Positions 1-6,844 of a stretch of 64,000 nt of DNA are shown here, piece by piece. A model generated the notes under the pieces. It made no database searches. It worked only from the letters and a program-made list of their open reading frames with translations, and was not told where the DNA came from. Source of the DNA: Bacteroidota bacterium (GTDB lineage Bacteria; Bacteroidota; Bacteroidia; Bacteroidales; WCHB1-69); NCBI GenBank assembly GCA_029570835.1, contig JAKPTX010000089.1, forward strand, positions 98,637 to 162,636, read 5' to 3'. Numbering within the stretch: the first letter of the stretch is position 1; each line of letters opens with the position of its first letter. Position numbers and translations under genes: made by a program.

Positions 1-10
1 CTTTCTTATT

Positions 11-2161
11 TTATTCCTTTCTTTTTAAGTAGTTTAGTACTTTTTTCACCTCTTCTACATGTTTTGAAGGAACCAGTTCTTCCGACAATAAACTTTCTAA
101 ATCTTCCACGCAACTTTCCCCATAAGTTTTGTTACTTTCAGGTGATTTTTGGCTAGATATTTCTTGATAAATTGACCAAGCTTCTTCATATTTTCCCAGT
201 AAAAGCAAGGCATGTGCCAGATTGGTTTTTATCCCTGTTTGTGTACTATCCAGGCGAAGGGCTTCAAGGGCATATTCCTCCGAAGAGCTATACTCTTGTG
301 TATAAAGTGTATAGAGAGATAGAGTACCCAAAGAAGATGCAACATTATTGGGGAGATCGTCAAATTTTTTTCTTAACAAAACACTACGTGATGCAAACGA
401 TACAGCTTTTTTGTATTTTTTATTTTTTTGACAAACAGATGCAAGATTTTCTGTTACATTGATTAATTTTAGTGTATAAGCGTTGGGATCTTTTTTAGCT
501 AATTTTTCATAGATTTTCAAACAGCGTAAATAGATCTCTTCAGCCTTGGCGTACTCTCGTTGGTCTTTATAATTAAGTCCCAGATTATTTAGTACTAGAG
601 TTACATCAGGTAAATAAACCTTTGGACTTTCTTTGGCTAATTTTTCATAAATTTCTAGACAACGTAAAAACATAGCTTCAGCCTTGGGATAGTTACTTTG
701 GGCTCTATAATTAAATCCTAGATTATATAGAATATCAGCTAAATCAGGTAAATAAACTGCAGGATTATCTTTAGCTAATTCTTCACGTATTTCTGAACAG
801 CGTATAAACATAACTTCAGCTTTGGAATAGTCATTTTGGTCGTTATAGTTAGCTCCCAGATTATTTAACAACGCAGCTAAATTAGGCAAAAAAATTCTTG
901 GATTTTCTATAGCCAATTCTTTGGATTCGTTATCTATATCTTCAAATTCACTGATAATTGTGATAGGTTTACCGTTTCGTTCGGTAAGTTCTACAGTGAA
1001 GGGCTGCTTTGTTGGCTGAGTGCTTTCTAATTCTTGCACTGTTTCAGGTTCTAAAAGGTAATCATCCAGTAATAATGCATTCAATTTATCTTCCCAGTCG
1101 CTATGTTTTATAGTTTCTTGTTGTTGACTAATTTTGATTGTCGATTTTACTTGATTCTTTGCCCTTATTCTATCTTTCAAATAGATGTCAACGAATAAAT
1201 TGCTTTGTTGGCGTTTTTTGAAAAGCGGTTCTTTGCAGTCAAACTGCACATCGCGTGCATCTTTGTAAAGCCCGGGAATATTGTTTTCATCGTATATCTG
1301 AAATTCTGTGGTGTGGGTACGCCTTTTATCTAAAATCCAATCAAACATCAAGCTGGGGTCGTAGATAAAGTAACGCACATAATCAACGTTTTCCGTGCCA
1401 TTTTCAGAATTATACCACTCTTTTTTCTCTAAGATACTTTTAGTTTTAACCTTTTTATGATTGTTAAAATTTCCACCGATTAATTCTATCGGGATATTCA
1501 CATCATGTGCCCATTCATGAGGGTTTTCAGGGCTTAGATTAATTAAGTCCAGTAAAGCTAAACCGAATGCAGAACATCCGCTTCCTTCATGCTCAAAGCG
1601 GGGATTAAAAGCACCACCATAAAACTCATATTCTGCTCGACCGTCTTCTTTTGGTTTAGTATATTCATCGATAAATGCTAAAATCCTTTCCATCGCTTCT
1701 TTGGAAATTCTGTATTTAATAAAAGCCAGTTTCTCTCGATCTGCATATATCTTAAGTTTTTCGCGAATTGTCTCGTCCGGCTCTATCCTTCCGTTCAAAA
1801 CTACACCCATAATAGCCATTCCGACTTTTTCTTTGAAAATCAAATCGCGCTTTTCTTTCATCGTACATGATAATTGAGCTATGTGGAGTTCGCCACCGGG
1901 CACTAAATGGCTTTGTAATCTTACAATAACGTGCCCAAACAGATAGTTGTTTTTTACGGCAATTGTTTTTATGTAACAACTCATCATGGATGAGTAGAGT
2001 GTCGATGGACTATCCCAAATAAACGGTTTGAGAGTGGGTATAGCGTAAATTGTAATTTCATGCTTTTCATCCGTATTGTTCTGTGCAGAAACAATAATCG
2101 AATAAAACACAAGCAGAAGTAGAATAAAATAGGTTCTTATTGATTGAAAATATCTTTTCAT
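11..2161 (-). CDS. Exported TPR protein with an unrecognised N-terminal domain
   Basis: A 716-residue protein if translation starts at the ATG at 2161. I chose this start because it opens a clear signal peptide (residues 1-27, ending VSAQ) and lies 48 bases downstream of a TAnnTTTG promoter element; the open frame continues upstream to 2335 but runs through that promoter. Residues 30-390 form a domain I do not recognise. It holds an isolated FGHVIVRL motif (His77) and a GSGCSAFG motif (Cys196), an order like circularly permuted NlpC/P60 papain-fold enzymes, but this is only a resemblance. From about residue 410 there are four 46-residue kinesin-light-chain-like TPR units, then a diverged C-terminal repeat region. 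The C-terminal 300 residues are nearly identical to those of the neighbour at 2348-4954, so the two are tandem paralogs. Likely periplasmic; function unknown. Confidence 0.8.
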   Translation of the reverse strand: MKRYFQSIRTYFILLLLVFYSIIVSAQNNTDEKHEITIYAIPTLKPFIWDSPSTLYSSMMSCYIKTIAVKNNYLFGHVIVRLQSHLVPGGELHIAQLSCTMKEKRDLIFKEKVGMAIMGVVLNGRIEPDETIREKLKIYADREKLAFIKYRISKEAMERILAFIDEYTKPKEDGRAEYEFYGGAFNPRFEHEGSGCSAFGLALLDLINLSPENPHEWAHDVNIPIELIGGNFNNHKKVKTKSILEKKEWYNSENGTENVDYVRYFIYDPSLMFDWILDKRRTHTTEFQIYDENNIPGLYKDARDVQFDCKEPLFKKRQQSNLFVDIYLKDRIRAKNQVKSTIKISQQQETIKHSDWEDKLNALLLDDYLLEPETVQELESTQPTKQPFTVELTERNGKPITIISEFEDIDNESKELAIENPRIFLPNLAALLNNLGANYNDQNDYSKAEVMFIRCSEIREELAKDNPAVYLPDLADILYNLGFNYRAQSNYPKAEAMFLRCLEIYEKLAKESPKVYLPDVTLVLNNLGLNYKDQREYAKAEEIYLRCLKIYEKLAKKDPNAYTLKLINVTENLASVCQKNKKYKKAVSFASRSVLLRKKFDDLPNNVASSLGTLSLYTLYTQEYSSSEEYALEALRLDSTQTGIKTNLAHALLLLGKYEEAWSIYQEISSQKSPESNKTYGESCVEDLESLLSEELVPSKHVEEVKKVLNYLKRKE

Positions 2162-2208
2162 GTGGTGTTTTAAAAATCTCCGTATGGAGTGGTGTGTAAT
2201 AAACTTTG

Positions 2209-2216
2209 CAAAGATA
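2209..2216 (-). promoter_or_regulatory. Bacteroidota -7 promoter element (TATCTTTG)
   Basis: TATCTTTG on the minus strand matches the TAnnTTTG -7 consensus of the phylum and lies 48 bases before the ATG at 2161. No convincing -33 TTTG was seen. It argues that the first TPR gene has its own promoter and that the upstream extension of its frame is not translated. Confidence 0.55.
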
Positions 2217-2221
2217 AATAC

Positions 2222-2290
2222 TTTTTTCAAGAGAAGCATAGGTGTTTTCCTGTTCCAAATTAGAATGCGTTGATAAAACACATTACCATA
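2222..2290 (-). pseudogene. Relic of the coiled-coil region of a TPR paralog
   Basis: On the minus strand the DNA around 2222-2262 resembles the part of the neighbouring TPR gene at about 4470-4515 that encodes LEQENAYAS. Here it reads LEQENTYAS, then drifts out of frame. The shared core is TTTGGAACAGGAAAA, followed by a CCTATGC word. It sits just upstream of the promoter of the first TPR gene and probably marks a recombination or duplication scar. Only about 40 bases align well by eye. Confidence 0.5.
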
Positions 2291-2347
2291 AAAAGGGGAA
2301 GTTGGTATAAAACAAAAAGAAATAATATGTTTCATTATATAATTTTT

Positions 2348-4954
2348 TTATTCTATTGATTTTAAATAGTTTACTATTTTCTTTACTTCTCCAACATGTG
2401 CTTCAGGAACTAGTTTCTCCGACAGTAAATTTTCTAAATCTTTTACACAACTTTCTCCATAATTCTTGTTAGTTTCAGGTGATTTTCGGCTAGATATTTC
2501 TTGATAAATTGACCAAGCTTCTTCATATTTTCCTAGTAAAAGCAAGGCATGCGCCAGATTTGTCTTTATTCCTATTTGTGTACTATCTTTACGTAAGGCT
2601 TCAAGAGCGTATTTCTTTGATGAGTTATACGCTTGCGTATAGAGTGCATATACAGAGAGAGTACCCAAAGCAGATGCAATCTTGTCCGGGGAATCGTTTA
2701 TTTTTTTCCGTAACCGTACACTTTGCAACGCATATGATACAGCTTTTTGGTGTTTTTTGTTTTTCTGTGTAACAGATGCAAGATTATCTGTCACATCGAT
2801 TAACTTTGGTGTATAAATATCAGAATCTTTTTTGGCTAATTTTTTGTAGATTTTCAAACAGCGTGAGTAGCTTTCTTCAGCCTTGGAATACTCTTGCTGG
2901 TCGTTGTAATTAAGCCCCAGATTATTCAACGCCAAAGCCAAATCAGTTAAGTAAACCTTTGGATTTTCTTTGTCTAATCCCTCGTAGATTTCCAAACAAC
3001 GTAAAAATACAGCCTCAGCTTTAGGATAGTTTTTTTGAGCTCTATAGTTAAATCCCAAATTATAAAAAATATCAGCTAAATCAGGCAAATAAATTTCCGG
3101 ATCCTCTTTAGCCAATTCTTCACGTATTTCGGAACAGCGTATAAACATTGTTTCAGCTTGAGTGTAATTTTGTTGGGAATAGTAGTTAATTCCCAAATTA
3201 TTTAACGTCGTGGCTAACTTAGGTAAATATACCTTTGGATTTTCTTTGGCTAACTTCTCACGTATATCTAAACAGCGTAAAAATATTGTTTCAGCTTTGG
3301 AAAAATCACCTTGAGCTTTATAATTAAAAGCCAGATTATTTAATACCAAAGCCAAATCAGGAAGATAAACCTTGTTATTTTCTTTAATTAGTTCTTCGTA
3401 GATTTCCAAACAGCGCAAATAGATCTCTTCAGACTTAGCAAACTCTCTTTGTTCGTTATAATTAAGTCCTAGATTATTCAAACCCAAGGCCACATCAGGC
3501 AAAAAAACCTTTGGATTTTCTTCGGCTAATTTTTCGTAGATTGCCAAACAACGTAAGTACATAGTTTCAGCTCTGGAATAATCCTTTTGATCATTATAGT
3601 TGGCACCCAGATTATTCAATAACGCTGCCAAATGAGGCAAATGAACTTTTGAATCCTCTTTTGCTAATTCTTCGTTGATTTCCAAGCAGCGTAAATAAAT
3701 CTTTTCAGCTTTAGAATACTCTTGTTGCTCATTATAATTTAACCCTAAATTGCTCAACACTGCGGCCAAATCAGGTAAATAAGCTTTTGGATTTTTTTTG
3801 ACTAATTTCTCTCTGATTTTTAAACAGCGTAAATAGCTTTCCTTAGCCTTGAAATATTCATGTTGTTCGTCATAATTAAGTCCCAGATTATTTAATGTCG
3901 AAGCCAAATTGGGTAAATAAATATTTGGATTTTCTTTGGCTAATTTTTCATAGATTTTTAAACATCGTAAATATACGGATTCAGCTTCGGAGTACTCTCG
4001 AAGTTCGTACAGATAATTAGCATATTCAAAAAGATATTCGACATTCAGGGTGTCTAATTCCATTATTTTTTCATACGCATCTATGGCGTCTGAGTACAAG
4101 TATAATGACGCTTTGGAGCGCGCATTGAGCAAAAGCGTTTCCACAAGACTTTTACGTTCTTGCTCTGCTTTGGCAAACTTTTGCTCAGCATTTGTAGTGA
4201 GTTGCTCAGCTAATTCTTTTTCATCCCGGGCATCAGATTCTAATTTCTGTATAGCAGCACGTTTCTTTTCATAATCGAGATGTTGATCAAGGTAACGAGA
4301 TACACTATCCAATTCACCTTGCTCAAACATACGATAGGCGTTGAGATAAACAGAATCCGCCCTATCCAGGTTAATCACAATCATGCGCTCAACATACTCC
4401 TTGATACGGGATAACGCATCGGCTCTGTCATCTGTAATAACCTTCAAACTGTCAATGGTTTTTTGATACTCTTCACTGGCATAGGCATTTTCCTGTTCCA
4501 AACGCGCAATACGCTTATTGAGCTCTTTAATCTTACGGGCTCGCATCTCGTCTTGCTTTTTCATGTTGATTCCTATGAGCTCTGCTTTGCGGCGGTCCAG
4601 TTCGGCTTTATTGCAAATATAAATCTGAACAGGAAGCGAACGTCCCAATGTGATGTCCTGGATTTCCCGTTCATTGACTACAACAAAATCTTTGTACTTA
4701 CCCATTGGGGTAACCTGTATGCCTATCTGTGTCCCACTTCCTACACCTGTGATATGCAAGCGAAATTTTCCATCGCTATCGGTAGATGTAGGTTTTGCCT
4801 TGGGATGTGTGATACTTGCATCTGAAACATATTCTGTTTTTCCTGTGTTTACACGGCTATTTTGTACCGTCACAACTCCCTCTAATGGAATCTGCTGACT
4901 ATGTAGATTTCCACAAATAAGGAAAAAAATAAGCGGAATTAAATGTTTTCTCAT
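2348..4954 (-). CDS. Exported protein: CarboxypepD_reg-like domain, coiled coil, 46-residue TPR array
   Basis: An 868-residue protein with a signal peptide (1-19), a beta-sandwich region resembling carboxypeptidase regulatory-like or CNA-B domains (about 20-115; TSTDSDGKFRL is the hallmark), a long charged coiled coil (about 120-270), then at least eight TPR units with a strict 46-residue period (about 330-740). Each unit follows a pattern close to YLRCLxIxEKLAKENPKVYLP, with a Cys at the same place in nearly every repeat. Kinesin-light-chain TPRs usually have 42 residues. The stop of the upstream gene (4961) is 6 bases before this ATG, so the two are probably co-transcribed. Probably periplasmic or surface-associated protein-protein interaction scaffold; partner unknown. 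Confidence 0.8.
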   Translation of the reverse strand: MRKHLIPLIFFLICGNLHSQQIPLEGVVTVQNSRVNTGKTEYVSDASITHPKAKPTSTDSDGKFRLHITGVGSGTQIGIQVTPMGKYKDFVVVNEREIQDITLGRSLPVQIYICNKAELDRRKAELIGINMKKQDEMRARKIKELNKRIARLEQENAYASEEYQKTIDSLKVITDDRADALSRIKEYVERMIVINLDRADSVYLNAYRMFEQGELDSVSRYLDQHLDYEKKRAAIQKLESDARDEKELAEQLTTNAEQKFAKAEQERKSLVETLLLNARSKASLYLYSDAIDAYEKIMELDTLNVEYLFEYANYLYELREYSEAESVYLRCLKIYEKLAKENPNIYLPNLASTLNNLGLNYDEQHEYFKAKESYLRCLKIREKLVKKNPKAYLPDLAAVLSNLGLNYNEQQEYSKAEKIYLRCLEINEELAKEDSKVHLPHLAALLNNLGANYNDQKDYSRAETMYLRCLAIYEKLAEENPKVFLPDVALGLNNLGLNYNEQREFAKSEEIYLRCLEIYEELIKENNKVYLPDLALVLNNLAFNYKAQGDFSKAETIFLRCLDIREKLAKENPKVYLPKLATTLNNLGINYYSQQNYTQAETMFIRCSEIREELAKEDPEIYLPDLADIFYNLGFNYRAQKNYPKAEAVFLRCLEIYEGLDKENPKVYLTDLALALNNLGLNYNDQQEYSKAEESYSRCLKIYKKLAKKDSDIYTPKLIDVTDNLASVTQKNKKHQKAVSYALQSVRLRKKINDSPDKIASALGTLSVYALYTQAYNSSKKYALEALRKDSTQIGIKTNLAHALLLLGKYEEAWSIYQEISSRKSPETNKNYGESCVKDLENLLSEKLVPEAHVGEVKKIVNYLKSIE
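2800..4010 (-). repeat. 138-bp tandem repeats encoding TPR units
   Basis: The anchor AAACAGCGTAAATA or close variants recurs about every 138 bases (near 2856, 2993, 3130, 3270, 3408, 3546, 3683, 3822 and 3960). The same unit recurs in the downstream paralog near 519, 657 and 795. Unit-to-unit DNA similarity is high, which suggests recent amplification or homogenisation. Confidence 0.85.
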
Positions 4955-4960
4955 GGCAAT

Positions 4961-6466
4961 CTATTTATTTTTACGAAGGTATAAACTAAAATCATGAGAA
5001 CCAACCATGGGTTGTTCAGTACGATAGGGTTCATATCCCTCTTTGTAAACCTGGATTTCCTGCCGTTCATTCTGTTTATCTAAAGGGATGGGAAGGGAAA
5101 ATTCTCCGAAATTATCGGTATAGGTGCTTTCACCGGCAATACGTACCATGGCACCAACAATGGGTTCCAGCGTGTTTTCATCTTTTATGTACCCGTGAGC
5201 CAATTCCAATCCTTCAATACTTACAGAAAGATAAGCTATTTGCTTTTTATTCACTGTTAGAATATCATCTACACAAAAATAGGGCATTCCTTCGGTGTTT
5301 TCAATGGAAACCTGTGCTATTTTACCGGAACAAGAGTGTGGTAACTCCATAAAAACAGCATTTCCCTCTTTGTTGATATCGGAACTGTAAATTTTATTAT
5401 CGATGGTTATCTTAATAGTTCCTGTACCTTGTAAAGGATGATGCTCTTTTCCTTTCCAGCCATGCACACTAACCGTCAGATTAAAAGGACGAGTTAATGA
5501 ACGATAAGAAACGATGGTACCGCCGACCAGTAAAATTGCAAGCACTCCAACAATCAATCCCAGTAAAATTCGTTCTCTGCGTTCCTGTTTTCGGTTGAGT
5601 TCAATCAACTCTTTTACCGTTTTATTTGTATGGGTAGTTATTTTTAATATCTCGTTTGCTTTATCTTCGACAGCGGAAAGAGCATCCGTCAAGTTATTGT
5701 TGAGTACGATATTGAAATGCTTTTTATCATTCAATAACTCATTGAGTTTTTTCAGTTCATTCAGTTGGGTTTCATTCAAACCGGTGGTACCTGTCTTAAT
5801 AGCAGAGATATCTTGCTGAATATCCTTTTGGGTTTGCTCAATACGTGTTACGATATCGCATATTTCGTCGGACATCATACGTTGGAAAGCTACCCATGCA
5901 TCGCGATGATCAGGATTTTTTAATCCTTCTCCAAAACAAAGTTGTATTTGAGCCGGAAAATGCTCAGCAATAAACTTTCCAAATGACTCGCTGATATTAT
6001 CCGATACCAATTTCTCAGCGATATAATTGGCTATTTCTCCATTATCGCTTTGAGGATTCTTTAAAAAAGAACTTATAATTTCATCATTAATATTGGGATC
6101 AGAAATGTTTTGAGCATCCAAAAATGCTTTTTTCAAAGATGCAATTATTTTCTTAGCCTCTTTTTTTTCTTTTTTCGATATCGGAGTCTCTGAATAAAGA
6201 ATCAATACATTGTCTAAAGCTTCAGCCATAGAGAGAAAAAACAACCTCTTTATACTATGATTGAGGTCATTAGGGTGAGTGCCAAAAATGATTTGTTTTA
6301 ACTTTTGTGGCGAAAGTTTTTGGATAGTATCTGCCGCAAAATTGGCAGTAATACCACTGATTAAGGTCAAAAATGCCGTACTCGTTATACCTGAAGTGAG
6401 GTACGACAAACCGACATGTATTACGGTGCCGGCTACAGACATTACCATTGGAGCTACTTTTGCCAT
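4961..6466 (-). CDS. Membrane-anchored coiled-coil protein with C-terminal CarboxypepD_reg-like domain
   Basis: I place the start at the ATG at 6466 (MAKVAPMV, 501 residues); a GTG at 6493 would add nine residues. It shows a glycine-rich hydrophobic N-terminus (about 5-45), a helical domain, a segment RDAWVAFQRMMSDEI followed by a Gln/Ile/Thr coiled coil of the sort often seen near the N-terminus of bacterial STAND- and TPR-type signalling proteins, and one clear transmembrane helix (about 301-322). Two beta-rich domains follow, the last being carboxypeptidase-regulatory-like (GYIKDENTLEPIVGAMVRI, then DNFGEFSLPI). No NTPase motif is present. It leads an operon with the TPR gene that starts 6 bases after its stop; the two share the CarboxypepD-like fold. 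Function unknown; a role as membrane sensor or scaffold is inference. Confidence 0.7.
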   Translation of the reverse strand: MAKVAPMVMSVAGTVIHVGLSYLTSGITSTAFLTLISGITANFAADTIQKLSPQKLKQIIFGTHPNDLNHSIKRLFFLSMAEALDNVLILYSETPISKKEKKEAKKIIASLKKAFLDAQNISDPNINDEIISSFLKNPQSDNGEIANYIAEKLVSDNISESFGKFIAEHFPAQIQLCFGEGLKNPDHRDAWVAFQRMMSDEICDIVTRIEQTQKDIQQDISAIKTGTTGLNETQLNELKKLNELLNDKKHFNIVLNNNLTDALSAVEDKANEILKITTHTNKTVKELIELNRKQERRERILLGLIVGVLAILLVGGTIVSYRSLTRPFNLTVSVHGWKGKEHHPLQGTGTIKITIDNKIYSSDINKEGNAVFMELPHSCSGKIAQVSIENTEGMPYFCVDDILTVNKKQIAYLSVSIEGLELAHGYIKDENTLEPIVGAMVRIAGESTYTDNFGEFSLPIPLDKQNERQEIQVYKEGYEPYRTEQPMVGSHDFSLYLRKNK

Positions 6467-6844
6467 AATAAAATTATTTTTTATAGTTTTCACTCACAAC
6501 CCGGTTGTAGAAATTAGAAGTAAGAGTTGGTAGATTTCGGATTTCGGAGGGCGGATTTTTGAGGTTTAAAGCCAGGGGATGGAAGTCAAAAAATAGAAAT
6601 CAGAAATCGGAATTGAGAGGTTTTGGTTGTTTTGACACTGCGAATATAGCTGTTTTTTTTGTATTTTTCGACTTTTTATGTGATTATTTTCAAAATATTA
6701 TTTTAAATAACTGATAATCAATCGATTATAATTAATAATATAATAATAATACACAAACAATCCTATCCGTAATATTTATTCCGAAATCTGAAATCCGGGT
6801 TAAACAAAAATCCATACCTTTGCAGATTATCAATTTTATCATTT
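6467..6844. other. Intergenic region with heptamer repeats and a core-A repeat copy
   Basis: No gene seen in these 378 bases. It holds short arrays of 7-base repeats (ATTTCGG twice at 6534-6547, AGAAATC twice at 6595-6608, CGAAATC/TGAAATC at 6782-6795). It also holds a diverged copy of the core-A repeat (6691-6733, minus orientation) and the promoter of the downstream glycosylase gene. Confidence 0.7.
6815..6822 (+). promoter_or_regulatory. -7 promoter element (TACCTTTG)
   Basis: TACCTTTG matches TAnnTTTG and lies 22 bases before the ATG at 6845, leaving a very short leader for the glycosylase mRNA. Confidence 0.65.

What the first reader, a model, noticed from the sequence alone, without database searches (positions are those of the whole stretch)
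11..6466. Three-gene accessory locus: membrane coiled-coil protein and two exported TPR proteins
The first two genes share a CarboxypepD-like fold and lie 6 bases apart; the third is a paralog with its own promoter and a different N-terminal domain. A membrane-anchored helical protein, a long coiled coil and large recently amplified TPR arrays look like a sensor/scaffold system in the envelope with no known name.
Basis: partly seen in the sequence, partly recalled or inferred. Interest (0 to 1): 0.6.

Follow-up and report, generated by a model that had tools for sequence, protein, structure and literature searches.

The report
Trans-envelope receptor pair with swappable heads
Two of these neighbouring genes look like a widespread but undescribed bacterial sensing system, with a repeat protein outside the inner membrane and a membrane partner whose inner end is swapped between immune-type domains, so it may let bacteria trigger immune-like responses from signals sensed in the cell envelope.

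Summary
Gene A (4961-6466) and gene B (2348-4954) lie 6 bp apart; gene C (11-2335, probably starting at 2161) is a chimera of B's 3' end and a fourth gene, D, just outside the window. An ~8 kb block carrying A-B-C-D is missing from a sister genome, so it is accessory.

A and B form a conserved pair. A's C-terminal module (membrane helix plus two transthyretin-like domains) recurs in 34 loci examined; 28 have a B-like exported TPR gene alongside. All 12 B-positive genomes in a 291-genome sample also carry A. The cytosolic head of A is swapped: TIR, DUF4062-like, C39-like with an ECF sigma gene, or the window's helical head. That helical head also begins an NB-ARC/TPR protein elsewhere, i.e. it is NLR-type.

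Best reading: a trans-envelope receptor in which periplasmic B signals through A to a swappable, mostly immune-type output. Linkage and topology are shown by sequence; A-B binding, ligand and defence function are inferred. C and D are separable: D relatives occur without A/B. I found no description in the papers searched. "Sensor system in the envelope" is partly supported; "three-gene unit" and "recent amplification" are not.

The parts
4961..6466 (-). gene A: 501-aa membrane transducer (cytosolic helical head, coil, TM helix, two periplasmic transthyretin/CarboxypepD-like domains)
5771..6466 (-). A head, aa 1-232: NLR-type helical domain with a nearly uncharged Gly/Ala/Ser/Thr-rich N-terminal ~50 residues
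5501..5569 (-). A transmembrane helix, about aa 300-322
4964..5491 (-). A periplasmic tail, aa 326-501, two beta-sandwich domains: the module shared by all head classes
2348..4954 (-). gene B: 868-aa exported protein (apparent signal peptide, CarboxypepD-like domain, coiled coil, 46-aa TPR array)
11..2161 (-). gene C from its likely start (ORF runs to 2335): chimeric exported protein
1169..2161 (-). C N-domain (D-like; invariant His and Cys across 7 relatives, candidate cysteine hydrolase)
11..920 (-). C TPR region related to the 3' end of gene B (80% DNA identity)
1..6805 (.). window part of the accessory block; its left end lies about 1.19 kb outside the window and includes gene D (contig C40:97550-98572)

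Best explanation
A and B are a trans-envelope receptor pair. B is exported to the periplasm and senses with its TPR array. It couples, probably through its CarboxypepD-like and coil N-terminus, to the two transthyretin-like domains of A in the periplasm. A carries the signal across the inner membrane to its N-terminal cytosolic head. The head is the swappable part of the family: TIR, DUF4062-like, C39-peptidase-like with a partner ECF sigma factor, or the helical head seen here. The window's helical head is a domain that also starts an NB-ARC/TPR (NLR) protein, so it is probably an immune-type effector or adaptor; its Gly/Ala-rich, almost uncharged N-terminus suggests membrane insertion or oligomerisation on activation, ending in cell arrest or death. 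Shown by sequence: linkage, co-inheritance, shared tail and B N-terminus, swapped heads, membrane topology by the positive-inside rule, homology of the head to an NLR head, accessory status. Inferred: A-B contact, the ligand, head activity and the role in defence. C and D are accessory cargo: an exported candidate cysteine hydrolase and its fusion to B-type TPRs.
For: 28 of 34 A-type loci have a B-like gene adjacent (27, all same strand and within 628 bp; L121 added by tblastn). In the order search, 17 of 20 A matches are so paired. All 12 B-positive genomes of 291 are A-positive (hypergeometric 1e-17 to 2e-21). B N-termini of four head classes are homologous: with each class held out, all 23 proteins were still found (22 at E <= 9.2e-19, one at 2.8e-6). 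Tail module: one alignment of 12 rows, 211 columns. Heads form separate clusters of 15 TIR, 6 helical, 6 C39, 4 DUF4062-like and 3 singletons; TIR_2 E 2.2e-11; the WVxxE-type Glu is kept in 15 of 15 TIR heads (catalytic role recalled). Window head versus the NLR of G428: HMM E 2.1e-9, hhalign 96.7%; that protein has NB-ARC E 3.6e-7 plus TPR_10. Topology: K/R more on the N-side in 30 of 34, 160 versus 43 in total. Accessory: ~8 kb absent from G001 with only ~45 bp in its place; the P. circumdentaria pair is flanked by relaxase, TraG-like, TopB and ParA-like genes.
Against: No experiment and no complex prediction. Six of 34 A loci lack an adjacent B (L033, L088, L092, L093, L115, L125); in G055 a partial B sits on another contig and in G186 a B sits on another contig. 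No PADLOC family matches A, B or C. The C39 class with an ECF sigma gene points to transcription, not necessarily defence. Only one NLR with this head was found in 296 plus 114 genomes. The head has low-confidence models (pLDDT 65.5 and 67.3) and no convincing fold match, so membrane insertion is a guess from composition. The N-terminal segment of the NLR relative is less alike: 16% charged versus 2-7% in the six A heads.
Confidence: 0.55

Rival explanations
1. A non-immune cell-surface signalling system (works like FecA-FecR-ECF sigma): B reports a nutrient or envelope state through A, and the heads are just different regulators.
For: The C39 class comes with an ECF-type sigma gene (Sigma70_r4_2 E 1.7e-6; sigma70-ECF E 1.4e-9). 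The B N-terminus profile weakly matches the SusC N-terminal region (5t3r E 0.002) and A's second tail domain matches a SusC NTE structure (9hfj Z 11.8, 75 residues, 1.9 A).
Against: Most loci carry TIR or NLR-type heads (21 of 34 TIR or helical), not sigma factors; distribution is patchy and accessory (17 of 393 genomes; ~8 kb block absent in a sister genome).
Confidence: 0.27
2. A structural envelope scaffold: A anchors B's TPR array to organise other periplasmic proteins, with no signalling.
For: Coiled coils, TPR arrays and transthyretin-like domains are typical scaffold parts.
Against: Does not explain why the cytosolic end is exchanged for TIR, C39 or NLR-type heads.
Confidence: 0.08
3. 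A self-recognition or toxin-antidote pair: B holds the A head inactive, and loss or mismatch of B releases a toxic head.
For: Tight pairing, variable length of B (651 to 1860 aa), mobile-element context.
Against: Six of 34 A genes persist without an adjacent B; no toxicity data.
Confidence: 0.1

Closest known systems
STAND/NLR proteins (NB-ARC + TPR) of bacteria
   Same: The window's head is homologous to the N-terminal domain of an NB-ARC/TPR protein; TPR arrays of the TPR_10/TPR_12 type are used as the presumed sensor.
   Different: No NTPase in A; the TPR array is a separate exported protein; A is a membrane protein with a periplasmic tail.
Thoeris ThsB and other bacterial TIR effectors
   Same: TIR heads of sister systems match TIR_2 and ThsB_TIR and PADLOC ThsB profiles weakly (2.4e-8).
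   Different: TIR is on a transmembrane protein paired with an exported TPR protein; a ThsA partner was not searched for by profile; the window's own system has no TIR.
FecR-type cell-surface signalling (recalled)
   Same: Inner-membrane transducer with periplasmic beta domains; one sister class is beside an ECF sigma gene.
   Different: No TonB receptor pairing shown; output heads are mostly immune-type; the window class has no sigma gene beside it.
Conflict systems with a constant core and swapped effector (TRADD-N, EAD, VMAP systems; PMC8195603, PMC7159879, passages read)
   Same: Constant core, exchanged N-terminal effector, patchy distribution.
   Different: The core here is a membrane helix plus periplasmic domains with an exported partner; 'CarboxypepD' does not occur in PMC8195603.
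Animal Toll-like receptors (analogy only, recalled)
   Same: In the TIR class: extracytoplasmic sensing, a membrane helix, cytosolic TIR.
   Different: Opposite protein orientation, sensor in trans, TPR not LRR, no homology claimed outside TIR.

Membership tests
NLR/STAND | NACHT or NB-ARC NTPase in the protein | tested here: not met
   no NTPase match in A at E<=1 or in any of 6 orthologues at E<=10
NLR/STAND | N-terminal effector/adaptor domain shared with NLRs | tested here: met
   E 2.1e-9 and hhalign 96.7% to the NB-ARC/TPR protein of G428
Thoeris | ThsB TIR plus ThsA effector | tested here: not met
   window A, B and C have no TIR and no PADLOC match; sister TIR heads only resemble ThsB
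FecR/ECF cell-surface signalling | adjacent ECF sigma factor | tested here: not met
   none seen among the ORFs beside the window pair (Pfam of four of the left neighbours and the ATPase); present in the C39 class
FecR/ECF cell-surface signalling | interaction with a TonB-dependent receptor | not testable with these tools
   needs experiment
HeLo/Bell/MLKL-like pore-forming heads | membrane-inserting helical-bundle fold | tested here: inconclusive
   helical bundle predicted at pLDDT 67.3; best PDB Z 5.8; no family profile was compared directly
this A-B family | TM plus tandem transthyretin-like tail on A | tested here: met
this A-B family | adjacent exported B with the shared N-terminus | tested here: met
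   6 bp gap; held-out HMM E 3.4e-24 for window B
permuted papain-like (NlpC/P60-type) hydrolases, for C and D | His before Cys, both conserved | tested here: met
   H77 and C196 invariant in 7 of 7
permuted papain-like (NlpC/P60-type) hydrolases, for C and D | profile or fold match to the superfamily | tested here: inconclusive
   no meaningful Pfam match (best 0.092, unrelated) or PDB sequence match; fold not predicted

The most novel reading that the evidence does not exclude
Bacteroidota possess a family of inner-membrane immune receptors: one protein pair in which a periplasmic TPR sensor drives a membrane transducer with interchangeable immune heads, i.e. a bacterial counterpart in layout of Toll-like receptors, with the window's member using an NLR-type death head freed from its NTPase.
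Probability: 0.4. Interest if true: 0.87.

Novelty: new variant of a known kind. Interest (0 to 1): 0.7.

Why it matters
Known bacterial TIR and NLR immune systems are understood as sensing inside the cytosol (recalled). A co-inherited pair that joins the same heads to a periplasmic sensor would mean that bacteria can launch immune-type responses from envelope signals, and it gives a testable set of loci in four head classes (for the helical class, for example, in Dysgonomonas hofstadii and Porphyromonas circumdentaria) to ask what is sensed and whether heads are interchangeable.

Tried and rejected
Three-gene unit: rejected. Gene D relatives (5 other genomes of 295) have no A or B in the 12-15 kb fetched, and C is a D x B chimera.

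Recent TPR amplification: rejected on unit identity.

Using the tail profile across the phylum was uninformative by counts: 346 of 392 genomes matched, mostly short stretches of the second tail domain (CarboxypepD-like, in long proteins that I take for TonB receptors); only G584 and G433 were near full length outside the own genome. The stricter order search (E<=1e-11) was used instead.

Rows dropped: from the 21 rows, neighbourhoods were fetched for 14 besides the window's own; G164 and G171:C108 were then dropped as chance or CarboxypepD-only matches (their neighbourhoods, L043 and L044, are shown and were not given to the HMM); six rows (G073, G083, G099, G090, G072 twice) were not fetched. 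G503 (E 0.0026) was treated as chance: in the fetched stretch the long ORFs are on the other strand.

A fold for the head: no PDB match with E<=0.001 by Foldseek; VIA best Z 5.8, which the tool calls possibly only a common arrangement. No relative of A or D in viral contigs or of A and the G428 head in plasmids. No direct repeats of 8-24 bases at the block ends in the 101-base stretches compared.

Head swapping is not frequent: the tail tree needs 5 changes for 5 labels (least possible 4) and helical, TIR and C39 heads each need one change, so a head class is usually inherited with its tail.

Literature: seven full-text searches aimed at this system and one on helical NLR heads listed nothing that by title and start of abstract describes this pair; only passages of PMC8195603 and PMC7159879 were read, and the library holds open-licence papers only.
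Full report
Where it is. The window is contig C40:98637-162636 of a 2.92 Mb, 277-contig genome. Three minus-strand genes are present: A (4961-6466, 501 aa), B (2348-4954, 868 aa) and C (11-2335; likely start at residue 59, position 2161, where an apparent signal peptide begins). A and B are 6 bp apart. Just outside the window lies gene D (340 aa, C40:97550-98572).

The block is accessory. Compared with same-genus genome G001, own sequence matches up to C40:97447 and again from 105442, while G001 has about 45 bp between the two. The missing ~8 kb holds A, B, C and D. Its GC is 35.4%, against 39.7% in the left flank and 37.2% in window 7001-64000, a modest difference.

C is a chimera. Its first 993 nt are 86% identical to gene D and its last ~910 nt are 80% identical to the 3' end of B. 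D relatives (5 other genomes of 295) share an invariant GH motif and an invariant Cys in a GxGCSA-like motif (7 of 7), in the order His then Cys, as in permuted papain-like hydrolases (recalled). Pfam, NCBIfam and PDB sequences gave nothing useful. The five loci carry no A or B. So the third gene is not part of a conserved trio.

A-type proteins have one tail and many heads. A relatives search (197 genomes, 19 with a match) gave full-length relatives only in G055 and G043; most of the other matches covered the membrane helix and tail. Alignment of 12 such tails is collinear over 211 columns. Searching 393 genomes of the order with that profile gave 20 near-full-length matches in 17 genomes. 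With the loci I examined 34 A-type loci. Their cytosolic parts cluster by blastp into 15 TIR, 6 helical (the window type), 6 C39-like, 4 DUF4062-like and 3 singletons. Pfam supports TIR (TIR_2 E 2.2e-11, 2.7e-10, 2.7e-14 and 1.1e-12 in the four tested) and Peptidase_C39_2 (2e-5 in L113, 0.0061 in L115; in L036 only Peptidase_C39 at 0.071). DUF4062 is sub-threshold (0.2 in L038, none in L034; none in L116), so that label is tentative. A gene beside the C39-class member L036 encodes an ECF-type sigma factor; genes of similar length and start lie beside other C39-class members.

Tail tree. The helical class is one clade with strong support (99/98), TIR and C39 one change each with weaker support (83/79 and 78/75), DUF4062-like two; 5 changes in all against a shuffled mean of 17.5. 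Heads were therefore exchanged several times in the history of the tail but then inherited with it. The window's genus contains both a helical-head system (window) and a C39-head system (G002).

The partner. In 27 of 34 loci a B-like TPR gene lies within 628 bp on the same strand; tblastn adds L121, making 28 of 34. Without one are L033 (3.6 kb contig), L088, L092, L093, L115 and L125. In the order search alone it is 17 of 20. The B N-termini are one family: with each head class held out in turn, an HMM from the rest found all members of that class (9, 4, 5 and 5 proteins), 22 of 23 at E <= 9.2e-19 and one at 2.8e-6 (database size set to 3000). A profile of B N-termini (one of its 14 rows was by my slip a whole protein, which lengthened the model) searched in 291 genomes of the order gave 12 positive genomes, all 12 among the 17 A-positive genomes; hypergeometric probability 1e-17 to 2e-21 depending on how many A-positive genomes lie in that sample. 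I could not verify that all 291 genomes were among the 393. In five genomes tested by hand, G000, G002, G043 and G055 have a B and G001 has none, matching A presence.

Topology and folds. K/R residues are more numerous on the N-side of the membrane helix in 30 of 34, on the C-side in 1, tied in 3: head inside, tail in the periplasm, where B, with its apparent signal peptide, should be. AlphaFold2 of A (pLDDT 65.5) gives a helix at 284-324 and beta-rich domains after it; aligned to solved structures, 418-501 matches the carboxypeptidase D transthyretin-like domain (Z 12.2) and the SusC N-terminal extension (Z 11.8), and 326-418 a pilin sandwich domain (Z 8.4). A CarboxypepD-like domain in B is only weakly supported.

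The window's head. A profile of the first 232 residues of A and five orthologues was sought in 296 genomes of the phylum. Besides the own genome, one good match came up: the first ~220 residues of an 848-aa protein of G428 (E 2.1e-9; hhalign 96.7%), whose remainder has NB-ARC (E 3.6e-7, above the curated cut-off) and TPR_10. The helical head is therefore an NLR-type head. 113 other genomes of G428's order lack it. The head model has a helical bundle at 65-230 and a low-confidence N-terminus (pLDDT 67.3); no PDB fold match is convincing. The first ~50 residues of the six A heads have 2-7% charged and 36-58% Gly/Ala/Ser/Thr, which could suit membrane insertion or oligomerisation; this is inference.

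Spread. The named scan found A orthologues in Porphyromonas circumdentaria (44% identity), Dysgonomonas hofstadii and three MAGs. In five of the six helical-type loci B follows A directly; the sixth, G055, has a partial B at a contig end elsewhere. The P. circumdentaria pair sits among TopB, relaxase, TraG-like and ParA-like genes, i.e. in a conjugative-type element; there B is split into two ORFs (750 and 250 aa).

Mechanism. The pattern of one constant trans-membrane core, one constant exported TPR partner and exchanged cytosolic heads that elsewhere serve in immunity is best read as a receptor: B senses in the periplasm, A transmits, the head responds. In the TIR class the response would be NAD-based (all 15 heads keep the WVxxE-type Glu; its catalytic role is recalled), in the C39 class probably proteolysis and transcription, in the window class probably an NLR-like death or adaptor function. 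Defence against phage is the likeliest purpose because of head identity and accessory, mobile context, but envelope or nutrient signalling is a serious rival.

Novelty. PADLOC has no match for the window proteins and only partial TIR or TPR matches for sister systems; the papers I searched list nothing describing the pair. The swapped-effector principle is known (PMC8195603, PMC7159879, passages). I therefore call it a new variant of a known kind, with a bolder reading left open.

Noticed in passing
L009 4742-7713 (contig C40:91378-94349; left of the window): A second accessory block beside the first: an ankyrin-repeat exported-looking protein and a 324-aa partner, GC 27%, absent from G001, so this site looks like an insertion hot spot.
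   Followed up: partly
L037 13021-18820 (G002:C39): Downstream of the C39/sigma-type system: a second C39-like protein (Peptidase_C39_2 E 4.5e-7), a dynamin-family GTPase (E 1.1e-22), another GTPase-like protein and an Hsp70-like start (by eye), a possible further conflict module.
   Followed up: no
L034 2180-9782 and L038 10934-20000: DUF4062-like-head loci carry several tandem B-like TPR genes after one A gene, suggesting expansion of the sensor side.
   Followed up: no
L131 9525-12071 (G428:C31): NB-ARC/TPR protein with the window's head: a bacterial NLR whose N-terminal domain matched no Pfam family convincingly.
   Followed up: partly
L033 2663-3478 (G186:C434): A-type protein with a very short (about 79-aa) cytosolic part containing a NNNITLQDVSGHDITIN stretch, perhaps a small adaptor motif; not identified.
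   Followed up: no
L087 10503-13540 (Porphyromonas circumdentaria): B is split into two ORFs (750 and 250 aa) that both match B; real break or sequencing artefact not decided.
   Followed up: no
L009 8793-10740 (contig C40:95429-97376): A DUF4143/AAA_14 ATPase and, next to it, a PrsW-family protease border the block on the left and are shared with G001.
   Followed up: no
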